Assembly (NCBI RefSeq): GCF_000169175.1
Contig: NZ_AAWS01000012.1
Location: 67,001 to 131,000 of the forward strand
DNA from: Microscilla marina ATCC 23134
GTDB lineage: Bacteria; Bacteroidota; Bacteroidia; Cytophagales; Microscillaceae
Direction of reading: 5' to 3'
Length of the DNA: 64,000 nucleotides
Position numbers and translations under genes: made by a program. The notes beneath the pieces are model-generated. The model saw nothing but the letters and a program-made list of their open reading frames with translations, was not told where the DNA came from and made no database searches. Below are positions 14,847 through 43,307 of the stretch, in pieces; position 1 is the stretch's first letter; each line of letters opens with the position of its first letter.

Positions 14847-14927
14847 TGGGTTTAAGCAGTAGCAAGTCTTAGATACCGATTCCTATTGGCGCAATTAGCT
14901 ATTAAACTATCATAGTAAACTAATTAA

Positions 14928-15049
14928 CTAATGTTACATACCTTCCTCAAAAGGCTTATATTGTTTTGCGATGCATTGCGAAACAATATAGCCATATGAC
15001 AATATAACCATCAAAATAGAGGTGCTTAGAAGGATTTGCGTGACTTCAG
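14928..15049 (+). mobile_element. Candidate MITE, copy A (7-bp target duplication)
   Basis: This 122-bp element lies between direct repeats TAATTAA (14921-14927 and 15050-15056). Its right end TGACTTCAG and inner text 'AACCATCAAAATAG' match the element at 41015-41144; its left end is degraded. The middle is a near-perfect palindrome around ATGCAT, with TATTGTTTTGC inverted against GCGAAACAATA. There is no coding capacity. Confidence 0.65.
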
Positions 15050-15067
15050 TAATTAATTATTCAAGGC

Positions 15068-37954: not shown

Positions 37955-38080
37955 GGGGCTGTCTCATAATTCAAGCATTACCAAATTTCTTTTTTTAAGA
38001 AAAAACGGTTTTAAAAACCTGGCAGGTAGGGGTTAATATTCAAAATAATATTTTAGTTGAAGTTATTATGAGACAGTCCT
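37955..38080. mobile_element. Candidate MITE with GGnCTGTCTCATAAT terminal inverted repeats
   Basis: GGGGCTGTCTCATAAT (37955-37970) and ATTATGAGACAGTCCT (38065-38080) are inverted at 14 of 16 positions. The sequence resembles ends of common IS families. The 126-bp unit has no ORF. No clear target duplication is seen. It could also serve as terminator for the upstream peptidase gene. Confidence 0.5.
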
Positions 38081-38087
38081 TTTTTAG

Positions 38088-38263
38088 TTTTAGGAATGGT
38101 GAAAAAATAAATTACCGATTTTGAGGTAGGGATTTTATTCTGAGAGGAGGCACTTTTTGCAGGCGTAACCATAGCTACGGCTAAAAAAAGTAATGAAGTA
38201 TCAGGGTGAAAGAGCACCTCCACCCGAACTTGATTCGGGGGTTATTTTTTTTCCGTTCCTTAA
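38088..38263 (+). repeat. Long-hairpin intergenic element, copy 5
   Basis: TTTTAGGAATGG (38088 on) is inverted against CCGTTCCTTAA (to 38263). The apical stem ACTTTTTGCAGGCGTA...TACGGCTAAAAAAAGT is capped by CGTAAC-CATA-GCTACG (38164-38179), with one stem mismatch. The block GAGGCACTTTTTGC through CTACGG is shared with copy 6 (43912-43941). Confidence 0.55.
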
Positions 38264-39714: not shown

Positions 39715-40602
39715 TTAAATTTCTATCATTGTAGAGGGAGAAAACAATTTTTTTACTTTCACTTTTTCAGCCCCCGAAAAATGGTTTCCTACCAACCATA
39801 CCCGTCGTAGTTTTTTTAATTGACCAATTTCGGGGGGCAAGGTTGTCAAACGATTATAGCTCAGGTGTAGCACCTCAAGGTTGGTCATGAGACCTATCAA
39901 AGGAGTAACGGTTTCTATCTTGTTATGCTCTAATCGCAATTCGCGCAAATATTCTAGTTGGCATATACATTCAGGAAACTCACTGAAAAAATTATCATTG
40001 AGGTACAAACGTTTTAAGTATTTAAGGTTACTGATCTCGTCTGGCAAGGTACTTAATTGATTGAGCTCAAGAAATAGAAAATTTAAATTAGTAAGCCCAC
40101 CCACCGCAGCAGGCACCTCCTCAATGTCGAGGTTATCAAGCGAAAGCTCCCGATTATGAATCCAATCCTGTAGTTGGTCGGCACTAGCAGTTTGTTGCTG
40201 GAGGCAAAACATCCAACCTGTATTCAATAACCGCAAGGCAGTATTGCCCACAATAGAAGAGTTAAGGTTAAACTCAAAGTGTAGTTCAGACAAAAAATCA
40301 GAAAGCTTTGACTCATTGTCCAAATGGTACTCCAGGTCAAAGTTATAACTGAGGGCATACACATCGGAGCTTGAAGCCAGACTGTTTTCAACAATTAATC
40401 TGGACTGTTCAGTCACAAAATCGTCAGGAAAAAAAAGTGAGATAGCAAAAAGGTAAGAAAGGATATCAATGGAAAGATTAGAGGTGTTTTCGGAGAGTTG
40501 AAACGCACCAATGATATTGCTTTTGTCCAGTGTTTCGAGTAATTCAAGTATGGTCTGAAAGTGCTCTTCAGACGAGTTGTCCAGATGTTGATTATTAGCC
40601 AT
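39715..40602 (-). CDS. Leucine-rich repeat protein
   Basis: 295 residues, cytoplasmic by prediction. The N-terminal domain (about 1-150) is helical and homologous to that of the 58927 protein: both have a run like 'IFALSLF/LFAISLF..D...E.S' and then 'VGNTALRLLNTGWMFCLQQQTA' against 'MGNTVLELLGRGIRFCLENKTA'. Five to six 23-residue LRRs follow ('LRELRLEHNKIETVTPLI', 'LEVLHLSYNRLTTLPPEI'). The C-cap 'NHFSGAEKVKVKKLFSPSTMIEI' is shared with 58927 as well. It starts a leftward pair with the NTF2-like gene. Confidence 0.88.
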   Translation of the reverse strand: MANNQHLDNSSEEHFQTILELLETLDKSNIIGAFQLSENTSNLSIDILSYLFAISLFFPDDFVTEQSRLIVENSLASSSDVYALSYNFDLEYHLDNESKLSDFLSELHFEFNLNSSIVGNTALRLLNTGWMFCLQQQTASADQLQDWIHNRELSLDNLDIEEVPAAVGGLTNLNFLFLELNQLSTLPDEISNLKYLKRLYLNDNFFSEFPECICQLEYLRELRLEHNKIETVTPLIGLMTNLEVLHLSYNRLTTLPPEIGQLKKLRRVWLVGNHFSGAEKVKVKKLFSPSTMIEI

Positions 40603-41014
40603 GGCAAAAGCCCTAAAAAGTAGTAAATCTCAATATTAGTTGAATAAGCATACATTGACATGACTTGTTTTAGCTTATTCTTAAAAGTTAATATACAAAA
40701 ACCCTACTATATTCTAAAGTTTTCATTTTTATCAAGGAGATTTATGACAAAGTAGTCATAATATAAGTGTTATGTTTAACCTTAAAATAGTGCTACTTAT
40801 CGAAATATCAAGTTGTTTAGTCTAAACTGATTGACTTTATACTAATATATGTTGTATACATAGACAAGAGCATAGTTGATTTACCTTATAAATAAAATTA
40901 GACATTCTAAAAAGTTTAATTTTTCCATAAAAAGCAAGCACCTACACACCCCAAAAATCATTGTTTTTGGGGTGTGTTTTTTTTGTAGGTACTTTTTAGT
41001 CAATTACTTAGTAT
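40603..41014. other. Intergenic region with an orphan terminator
   Basis: No gene is supported here. The only strong signal is the plus-strand terminator at 40944-40984, with no plus-strand gene upstream. An unannotated small RNA between about 40650 and 40984 is possible. Confidence 0.4.
40944..40984 (+). terminator. Strong terminator without an upstream gene
   Basis: ACACACCCCAAAAA (40944-40957) pairs perfectly with TTTTTGGGGTGTGT (40964-40977) around TCATTG and is followed by seven T. Confidence 0.8.
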
Positions 41015-41144
41015 CTCAAGTTACGCAGTTTTCTGAAGGTCACCTGTTTCTATTGTTGAATGGCTTTATTGCGCAATGCGTAGCCAAACCATTGAGCAAT
41101 AAAGCCATATAACCATCAAAATAAGTAGGTCTGCGTAACTTCAG
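41015..41144 (+). mobile_element. Candidate MITE, copy B (intact, 7-bp target duplication)
   Basis: A 130-bp element bounded by CTCAAGTTACGCAG (41015-41028) and CTGCGTAACTTCAG (41131-41144), inverted at 13 of 14 positions. It is flanked by perfect direct repeats TTAGTAT (41008-41014, 41145-41151). Inside is a hairpin of 16/17 pairs (GGCTTTATTGC... with GCAATAAAGCC). There is no ORF. It ends 12 bases before the tlpA-like stop codon. Confidence 0.8.
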
Positions 41145-41156
41145 TTAGTATAATAA

Positions 41157-42455
41157 TTATTGACTTTTCCCTTCAGCGATTAACTCATCCATTGTTTGTT
41201 TAAAATCTCTTTTAAAATCCTCATAATATTTGCCTGTTCCGGGGCCGTTAAACCCTGTGTGTATTTTACGTACCTTGCCCTGGCGGTCAATAAAAATGGT
41301 GGTAGGAAAAGATAAAATATGATTGAGCATTGGCAATGTTTTCGCGGCTTCTTTTTTATCATTATGCCCCGCAAATAAAAAGTCATACCCTATATTATAC
41401 CGTTTAATCATCTTCTCAATGCGTTTTTTCGCCTTCGCAAACTCAGGGCTGCGTTCATAAGCCAAACCGATAATTTCTACCCCACGACTTTTATTTTTGT
41501 CATACCAGGGAGCTAAAAAAGCCGTTTCATCCAAACAATTGGGGCACCAAGTGCCAAATATTTGTACCAACACCACCTTATTTTTAAACTTTGGGTCATT
41601 CAACGATACTTTTTTGCCCAACATATCAGGAAAGCTAAACGCAAGCTTGTCGTGACCAGGTTTTAGGTAAGTAAGCCTGTTGGCATCAGGTAATTTAGCT
41701 TGGGCGTTTTTTATCCCTGTCCAACTTTCGTATACACTTTTACCATGCCAAAACTGCCCCTTGAGACTGTCGCCTTGTTGGGTGGCTTGAAACAAAAAAG
41801 CGTGATTGCCATCAAAGGCGCTAATTTGTAGCTCACCAGCTTGGTTTACTTGTCCCTCAAGATAACGGTAGTCGCCAGTAGTAGTCATAAAAGTACCCGT
41901 TACCTTACGTTTTTGTTGTTTGAAAATACCTATAGCCGGATATGTGCTCCCATCTTTTTTGGTAAACTCTACCTGCCACCTACCATTAAAGTCAACCAAT
42001 GGTTGATTGGCATCAGCTACAGGAGCAAAACGGTAGTTTTTGCCGTGTTCAGCTTCAAACGCTACCTCATAAGGTTTTTTGAGCCCGTTTTTTATCCACA
42101 AACCCTTGATACGCCTCCCATCAATGATTTTACCCGTAAGGTAAGCATCAAACACGTGCAGAGTAATCTTGACCGAATCAGGTTTTACAAACTCAAATTC
42201 ATCAAGTAAAATGCGTTCTTCGCCATTGATGATATGGGCAGTATATTGTTGGTTTTCCTCGTTTTTTTTGATGTCTAACTGAAAGGGCAATTTGCCTCCC
42301 GGAGTTTGTATAGTAGCACGCCACATACCAGCGGTAAGTAGGGGCGTTTTTTGAGTTTGTTTGTTTTCTGAAGTGGGTTGTTTGCAGGCACTCACAAAAA
42401 ACAGGAGTAAAAACGTGTACAGCGCTAGTGAAAATTGTGGAAATATCTTTTTCAT
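41157..42455 (-). CDS. TlpA-like thioredoxin-fold lipoprotein
   Basis: A periplasm-facing thiol-disulfide protein. I use ATG 42455 (MKKIFPQFSLALYTFLLLFFVSAC), giving a lipoprotein signal with Cys24; the longer frame to 42482 lacks a sensible signal. Of 432 residues, the first about 260 form a beta-rich domain ('WRATIQTPGGKLPFQLDI', 'GRWQVEFTKKDGSTYPAIGIF') typical of Bacteroidota TlpA relatives. The thioredoxin domain follows with the redox CxxC in 'FGTWCPNCLDETAFLAPW' and cis-Pro region 'LSFPTTIFIDRQGKV'. Its partner is unknown; it is monocistronic. Confidence 0.88.
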   Translation of the reverse strand: MKKIFPQFSLALYTFLLLFFVSACKQPTSENKQTQKTPLLTAGMWRATIQTPGGKLPFQLDIKKNEENQQYTAHIINGEERILLDEFEFVKPDSVKITLHVFDAYLTGKIIDGRRIKGLWIKNGLKKPYEVAFEAEHGKNYRFAPVADANQPLVDFNGRWQVEFTKKDGSTYPAIGIFKQQKRKVTGTFMTTTGDYRYLEGQVNQAGELQISAFDGNHAFLFQATQQGDSLKGQFWHGKSVYESWTGIKNAQAKLPDANRLTYLKPGHDKLAFSFPDMLGKKVSLNDPKFKNKVVLVQIFGTWCPNCLDETAFLAPWYDKNKSRGVEIIGLAYERSPEFAKAKKRIEKMIKRYNIGYDFLFAGHNDKKEAAKTLPMLNHILSFPTTIFIDRQGKVRKIHTGFNGPGTGKYYEDFKRDFKQTMDELIAEGKSQ

Positions 42456-42524
42456 AATGGATGATTGAGTACTTAGTAACAATGTTCTAAATCGGACAGC
42501 TTCAAAGCCCCGATTTCTTATCGT

Positions 42525-42908: not shown

Positions 42909-43307
42909 GAAATGCTCCCTACTTTAGCTAAACAATCTTGAAGTCAATAGACAAAATGAATGGTTTGTAGCGCATTATTAAAAGCTGAGAGGAGTTCTTG
43001 TGGTAAAGTAAACAATATATCGGCAATAAGATTCTTTTAGGGGAGAAAATCTCTGTTAAACTAGTGTTAAGAGGTGAATAGTCTATAAAAAAGAGTGTTA
43101 TGGTAAAATGTGTTTTGGTTGGTCAAGGCAACAAGGGCATGGCACCACGACAGTTGCTTACAAAATAAATTTTAATGAAGTGTGGCTGGTAAAACTGAGG
43201 TTAAAAATGCGTATTTATTTGGTTACCACCCCTTAAGATGCGGGCAAAGTTTTTATCTATCTTTCGAATCTCCTACCTTGCCAATAAATTACAAACAAAA
43301 AATTGAT

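What the first reader, a model, noticed from the sequence alone, without database searches (positions are those of the whole stretch)
41008..41151. Intact 130-bp MITE with 14-bp terminal repeats and a perfect 7-bp target duplication
Seen: TTAGTAT, CTCAAGTTACGCAG, hairpin interior, CTGCGTAACTTCAG, TTAGTAT. These are all the marks of a cut-and-paste non-autonomous element. No transposase is in the window. The interior stem GGCTTTATTGC/GCAATAAAGCC makes the whole unit foldable.
Basis: seen in the sequence. Interest (0 to 1): 0.6.

Follow-up and report, generated by a model that had tools for sequence, protein, structure and literature searches.

The report
Orphan MITE of IS701-family transposons
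This is a short, gene-less jumping DNA element, one of about thirty relatives in this bacterial genome, that was very probably moved by a borrowed enzyme of a known transposon family; it is an ordinary kind of mobile element whose likely kind of parent could be traced.

Summary
A 130-bp element (41015-41144) has near-identical 14-bp ends and a perfect 7-bp duplication, TTAGTAT. It is a genuine MITE. Thirty copies extracted from the same genome are 117-142 bp. Sixteen of 30 have a perfect 7-bp duplication and 2 of 30 a perfect 8-bp one; the consensus is the palindrome TTANTAA. Among 57 genomes searched, real copies were seen only here and in one congener. That congener lacks this copy at the orthologous locus but carries an unrelated MITE in the same TTA. 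Four copies of the 130-bp form, three identical, point to recent movement.

The likely kind of parent lies outside the genome. IS-sized (~1.1 kb) elements with ends CTGAAGTTACGCAG, or one to two changes from it, and 7-bp duplications encode an IS701-family (NF049921) DDE transposase. They form a supported branch beside ISAba11, which has TAGGACTTACGCA ends and 5-bp duplications. In the own genome only a ~51-codon transposase relic was found, so the MITE looks orphaned. Transposition in trans was not shown.

It is a new member of a known kind. Mildly new: an ISAba11-sister branch with 7-bp duplications, and targets that overlap or abut stop codons in 6 of 30 copies.

The parts
41008..41014 (.). 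Left target-site duplication TTAGTAT
   Evidence: Sequence; consensus of 30 copies TTANTAA
41015..41144 (+). MITE body, 130 bp, no transposase ORF
   Evidence: three copies identical over 130 bp
41015..41028 (+). Left terminal inverted repeat CTCAAGTTACGCAG
   Evidence: exactly this end in 19 of 30 copies
41062..41072 (+). Left arm of interior hairpin GGCTTTATTGC (wider quasi-palindrome 41042-41078)
41096..41106 (+). Right arm of interior hairpin GCAATAAAGCC (wider 41090-41126)
41131..41144 (-). Right terminal inverted repeat, CTGAAGTTACGCAG on the minus strand; identical to the left end of the Moraxella atlantae IS (L229) and to both ends of the Thioploca IS (L239)
41145..41151 (.). Right target-site duplication TTAGTAT
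   Evidence: Sequence
41157..42482 (-). Neighbouring gene (thioredoxin-like by its WCPNC stretch, recognised by eye, not searched); its stop codon lies 5 bp beyond the duplication
14928..15049 (+). Diverged relative of the same superfamily (122 bp, degenerate ends, TAATTAA duplication at 14921-14927 and 15050-15056)

Best explanation
It is a MITE: a transposase-less DNA transposon kept as two transposase-recognition ends around a quasi-palindromic spacer. A DDE transposase of the IS701 family, from the branch that is sister to ISAba11, binds the CTSAAGTTACGCAG ends in trans, cuts the element out and inserts it at a 7-bp palindromic TTANTAA target, whose staggered cut is filled in to give the 7-bp duplication. 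Shown: ends, duplication, multicopy distribution, absence of this copy at the orthologous site of a congener, identity of the ends and similarity of the duplication with IS701-type elements in other bacteria, and near-identity of the four 130-bp copies. Inferred: that such a transposase did the moving, that it acted in trans from an IS now lost or not assembled, and the cut-and-paste chemistry.
For: Copies and duplications. Nested insertion of one copy into another with its own TTATTTA duplication. Site without this copy in the congener. CTGA-type TTACGCA ends plus a perfect 7-bp duplication around IS701 transposases in Moraxella (L229, L304), Thioploca (L239, transposase gene in two ORFs), Acinetobacter schindleri (L305), Polaromonas (L306, L309) and two genomes of the window's own order (L274, L278). 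Transposase family NF049921: L229 353.6 bits against a cut-off of 250, and L274, L276, L278, L305, L309 all over the cut-off. Columns D84/D85, D180 and E288, taken as the catalytic triad from family knowledge (recalled), are invariant in 12 rows. The 12-row branch is separate from ISAba11 with 100/100 support. A ~51-codon transposase relic of this group is in the own genome and at the orthologous place in the congener.
Against: No intact transposase of this group was found in the own genome: 0 matches with one protein (10 of 16 candidates scored) and only the relic with a 12-row profile (14 of 14 scored). The left end has C instead of G at position 3 in 25 of 26 main-form copies, unlike the ends of L229, L239 and L274; CTCAAG does occur at one end of L275. 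Beyond the 14-bp end, no IS sharing more of the MITE was seen, so the exact parent is unknown. Three of 30 copies have no convincing duplication (L009, L010, L027) and nine have one mismatch. L275, L277, L279, L307 and L308 carry similar ends without a perfect duplication.
Confidence: 0.87

Rival explanations
1. MITE mobilised by an IS982-family transposase: the one IS982 found in the own genome has ends CCCAAGTTGCG / TTCAAGTTGCG and an AT-rich flank repeat.
For: Core AAGTTGCG resembles AAGTTACG; TTAATTAA on both sides; intact 268-aa ORF. Seven of the 30 IS982 loci L174-L203, the own one included, show an AAGTTGCG end.
Against: Ends lack the CAG extension and have G instead of A in TTACG; the flank repeat is 8 bp in the own copy. 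IS701-branch elements match 14 of 14 at one end, with 7-bp duplications. Only 13 of 25 own-genome IS982 candidates were scored, so a second one is not excluded.
Confidence: 0.04
2. MITE mobilised by the resident IS4-like element (3 identical copies, L109-L111) with ends CTGAAAACTCTACAG.
For: Resident, open reading frame without stops; same CTGAA...CAG frame; 7-bp duplications TATCAAA and CTCTTTT in two copies read.
Against: Aligned without gaps only 6 of 14 end positions agree and the central TTACG is absent; the two duplications read are not TTANTAA.
Confidence: 0.05
3. The unit is kept as a functional hairpin (3'-end stabiliser, terminator or small RNA), with mobility only its origin.
For: Very stable fold; 28 of 30 copies lie outside ORFs of 120 aa or more, and 10 of 30 have an ORF stop codon within 10 bp of the duplication.
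Against: No Rfam match at gathering score in the window; no terminator-like site inside the element; only 1 of 49 predicted pairs shows a compensatory change in 12 copies; the left arm is deleted in the three 117-bp copies (L026 folded). The stop-codon bias can follow from the TTANTAA target itself.
Confidence: 0.05

Closest known systems
IS701 family, ISAba11 group (NCBIfam NF049921)
   Same: Transposases of the matching IS elements pass the NF049921 cut-off; DDE family; ~1.1 kb; ends share the core TTACGCA; AT-rich targets.
   Different: ISAba11 itself: ends TAGGACTTACGCA, 5-bp duplications (L331 CTTTA, L332 ATATA; TATAG and ATTTA in passages of PMC7885321), about 25% protein identity to L229. 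The MITE's branch: ends CTGAAGTTACGCAG, 7-bp duplications.
MITEAba12 of Acinetobacter (mobilised by ISAba12)
   Same: Short non-coding element, ends shared with an IS, target duplications, AT-rich targets (abstract and passages of PMC6382973).
   Different: Its IS is resident and its duplications are 9 bp; here duplications are 7 bp and no resident IS was found.
MITEs of other Bacteroidota (Porphyromonas gingivalis, Cardinium)
   Same: Same kind of element in the phylum inferred for the window (search listing only, PMC4596501 and PMC9769881).
   Different: Not compared in sequence here.

Membership tests
MITE (non-autonomous DNA transposon) | Short, no transposase ORF | tested here: met
   130 bp; 30 copies of 117-142 bp
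MITE (non-autonomous DNA transposon) | Terminal inverted repeats | tested here: met
   13 of 14 positions
MITE (non-autonomous DNA transposon) | Target-site duplication | tested here: met
   16 of 30 perfect 7-bp, 2 of 30 perfect 8-bp, 0 of 20,000 permutations
MITE (non-autonomous DNA transposon) | Multiple dispersed copies | tested here: met
   40 matching rows in the own genome, 13 in the congener; both lower bounds because not all candidates were scored
MITE (non-autonomous DNA transposon) | Site without the element in a relative | tested here: met
   The congener lacks it at the orthologous locus, though another MITE sits in the same TTA
MITE (non-autonomous DNA transposon) | Autonomous IS in the same genome with matching ends | tested here: not met
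   No transposase match. Of the 61 ends with 0-1 mismatch, 58 belong to short copies; the others are one inside a gene (L064), one truncated copy (L062) and one 75 bp from a contig end (L079, whose sequence is MITE). Nine of 109 two-mismatch places were not listed. A preference, not a strict requirement, for a MITE
IS701-branch-derived element | Ends match an IS701-family IS | tested here: met
   Right end 14 of 14 with the L229 left end, both L239 ends and the L274 right end
IS701-branch-derived element | Duplication length and target match | tested here: met
   7 bp; MITE consensus TTANTAA; TTATTAA in L229, TTACTAA in L239, TTATTAA in L278, TAAATAA in L274
IS701-branch-derived element | Moved by that transposase | not testable with these tools
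   Needs a transposition assay
ISAba11 proper | TAGGACTTACGCA ends and 5-bp duplication | tested here: not met
   CTSAAGTTACGCAG ends and 7-bp duplication
IS982 family | Ends match an IS982 element | tested here: not met
   Only the AAGTT-CG core is shared

The most novel reading that the evidence does not exclude
A separate branch of the IS701 family, with CTGAAGTTACGCAG ends and 7-bp TTANTAA targets instead of ISAba11's 5 bp, spans several phyla and repeatedly gives rise to different MITE families (short elements with the same ends but other interiors, judged from the first bases read, in other Bacteroidota records). Such MITEs survive without any resident transposase, being re-mobilised by visiting IS copies, because TTANTAA targets sit at TAA stop codons, where the duplication can rebuild the stop. 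Within the family the hairpin arms copy each other (quasi-palindrome template switching): four 130-bp copies look corrected from the right arm, L024 from the left arm.
Probability: 0.4. Interest if true: 0.42.

Novelty: new member of a known kind. Interest (0 to 1): 0.27.

Why it matters
It links an anonymous repeat family to a specific transposase branch through ends and target duplications, and points to recent movement in a genome in which that transposase was not found. The branch's 7-bp duplication against ISAba11's 5 bp is a testable difference inside one transposase family. The practical use is annotation: the same ends mark short elements or IS copies in records of Bacteroidota, Ignavibacteria and Gammaproteobacteria (titles).

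Tried and rejected
Transposase by resident IS: the PF01609 scan of the own genome (22 matches) gave three multi-copy groups (ends TTAGGAGTGTTCAG, CTGAAAACTCTACAG, TTAANTTGTAG) plus four single loci; in these 22 loci no place was closer to the MITE end than 3 mismatches. IS982 looked promising and was set aside when IS701 elements matched better. A transposase remnant inside the 295-bp form (L061) or the congener-type 497-bp element (L225) was sought by tblastn; best E 0.86 for L225 and 4.5 for L061. The phage and plasmid collections hold no match to the MITE at E 0.01. Conserved RNA structure: only 1 compensatory pair of 49; no Rfam family at gathering score. Literature: no paper found that describes this family (searches; listings only, except the passages read); the founding ISAba11 paper is not held and was not used. 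The organism name was given by no tool; that the congener is the record titled 'Uncultured Microscilla sp.', and so the genus Microscilla, is inference.

Full report
WHAT IS THERE. It lies between a leucine-rich-repeat-type gene (39715-40602, minus; named by eye, not searched) and a gene on the minus strand (41157-42482) whose stop codon is 5 bp from the duplication. The unit folds strongly on either strand, as expected of inverted ends around a palindrome.

COPIES. The own genome (9.77 Mb, 135 contigs, 98% complete) gave 40 matching rows, from 40 of 77 candidates scored, so a lower bound; some of these rows are reverse-strand self-matches of the palindrome or short interior hits. I extracted the 30 rows that came with loci: 26 of the main form (117, 125, 130, 132, 133 or 134 bp; 16 of the 26 are 133 bp) and 4 of a 142-bp form. 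Further relatives were seen outside these 30: 145-153-bp forms (L073-L075), a 295-bp form (L061, and a truncated copy in L062), and a diverged form that includes 14928-15049 of this window. One main-form copy is inserted in a 142-bp-type copy, each with its own perfect duplication (C11, L069).

TARGET. Sixteen of 30 copies have a perfect 7-bp duplication, 2 a perfect 8-bp one, 9 one mismatch, 3 none; 0 of 20,000 permutations reach 16. L005 and L020 share flanks and are not independent. The consensus TTANTAA is palindromic. Twenty-eight of 30 copies lie outside ORFs of at least 120 aa, and the two others prove to be in a gap between genes (L029) and at the 3' end of a gene (L012). Ten of 30 have an ORF stop codon within 10 bp of the duplication: five overlap it (L006, L008, L010, L011, L020) and one abuts it (L022). 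A TTANTAA target naturally picks up TAA stops; no test of enrichment was made.

AGE. Three of the four 130-bp copies are identical and the fourth differs at one base, all four with perfect duplications, so this form probably moved recently. Among 57 genomes searched, only the own one and the congener G001 have real copies (13 matches in G001, 15 of 68 candidates scored); hits in G009 and G016 are 21-32-bp interior matches. Of 10 G001 loci compared with the 30 own loci, two are orthologous (L128 with L012, L134 with L015), so some insertions predate the split. The copy of the finding is younger: G001 has the same neighbourhood at 95-96% identity without it. There an unrelated MITE with GGAAYGGTG ends and a TTA duplication sits in the same TTAGTATAA sequence. 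That second family has at least 44 and 42 matching rows in the two genomes (not all candidates scored).

PARENT. An exact scan of genome contigs for TTANTAACYSAAGTTRCGCAG gave 57 stretches (the own genome's records may be left out), and of viral contigs 2. Among these 59 loci, eight have a facing end (3 mismatches or fewer) and a perfect 7-bp duplication: L206, L209, L217, L225, L229, L239, L245 and L248. Two of them are IS-sized: L229 in Moraxella atlantae (1138 bp, 361-aa ORF by the tool's start choice) and L239 in Thioploca (1113 bp, transposase in two ORFs). The L229 protein is an IS701-family transposase (NF049921, 353.6 bits, cut-off 250). With it as query, 34 of 193 relatives and 427 plasmid records have matches. 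Of the 26 loci whose ends I examined (18; eight new ones), eight have CTGA-, CTGG- or CTGT-type TTACGCA ends with a perfect 7-bp duplication (L229, L239, L274, L278, L304, L305, L306, L309); L276 has CTGAGCTTTCGC / CTGACCTTTCGC ends and an 8-bp one. L275, L277, L279, L307 and L308 have similar ends but no perfect duplication; L280-L283 show one such end with 1-3 mismatches beside a gene or gene piece; the remaining eight have other ends (several TAGGACTTTCGC or TAGGAGTTACGC) or none recognised.

PLACE IN THE FAMILY. ISAba11 copies fetched for comparison (L331, L332) have TAGGACTTACGCA ends and 5-bp duplications, as in the passages of PMC7885321; the L331 protein also passes NF049921. In a 20-row tree the 12 transposases of the CTGA branch form one group (100/100) apart from ISAba11. 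One NCBI model therefore covers two branches that differ in ends and in duplication length. That ISAba11 belongs to IS701 is stated in a passage of PMC7326120.

WHY ORPHAN. The L229 protein finds nothing in the own genome (10 of 16 candidates scored). A 12-row profile, all 14 candidates scored, finds one convincing ~51-codon relic (C27:30440-30592, E 1.6e-7), present at the orthologous place in G001 (91% over 2.1 kb), plus three hits at E above 0.01. The lineage thus hosted this transposase group long ago, but the recent moves need a later source: an IS since lost, on an unassembled replicon, or in the missing 2%. This is inference.

INTERIOR. The 133-bp left arm GGCTATATTGTTG became GGCTTTATTG, which matches the right arm; in L024 the right arm became AACAATATAGCC, which matches the left arm; in L014 two facing bases changed together. 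This fits template switching between hairpin arms, but slippage at TTGTTG plus a substitution could also make the 130-bp form, and 1 compensatory pair of 49 is no proof of selection.

VERDICT. A genuine, probably recently active MITE tied by its ends and targets to the IS701 family's CTGA-ended, 7-bp branch: a new member of a known kind, of modest interest.

Noticed in passing
window 14921-15056: A diverged relative of the same element superfamily (122 bp, TAATTAA on both sides), not mentioned in the finding; related matches in C54, C2, C41 and C14 of the own genome.
   Followed up: partly
window 38090-38262: A 167-bp element with ends GGAATGGTG / CCGTTCC and a TTA duplication: by its first 21 bases a member of a second MITE family with at least 44 matching rows in the own genome and 42 in the congener. 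A decayed piece lies at about 43150-43235.
   Followed up: partly
window about 37955-38079: Inverted repeat GGGGCTGTCTCATAA / TTATGAGACAGTCC enclosing about 125 bp directly beside the preceding element: looks like a third kind of MITE.
   Followed up: no
L273:1385-1600 (congener) against window 41008-41151: Two unrelated MITE families inserted independently in the same TTAGTAT target in sister species.
   Followed up: partly
L061:1543-1598 and own contigs C94, C23, C8, C48, C27, C30, C33, C36: Part of the 295-bp form (GTGTTGGTCTTAAGGCTTTAGCCTGACCAACAC) matches a hairpin repeat that recurs in arrays with spacings of about 100-400 bp at many places; unexplained.
   Followed up: no
L062:2910-3230: Truncated 295-bp form whose missing left end is replaced by a copy of about 23 bases of its right flank: an aberrant junction, perhaps a template switch.
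   Followed up: no
G016 contigs: Fifteen near-identical 30-32-bp hits to the MITE interior in a genome of another family of the order; could be another palindromic repeat family.
   Followed up: no
window 40944-40977: Strong terminator-like stem (15 pairs, followed by 7 T) upstream of the MITE.
   Followed up: no
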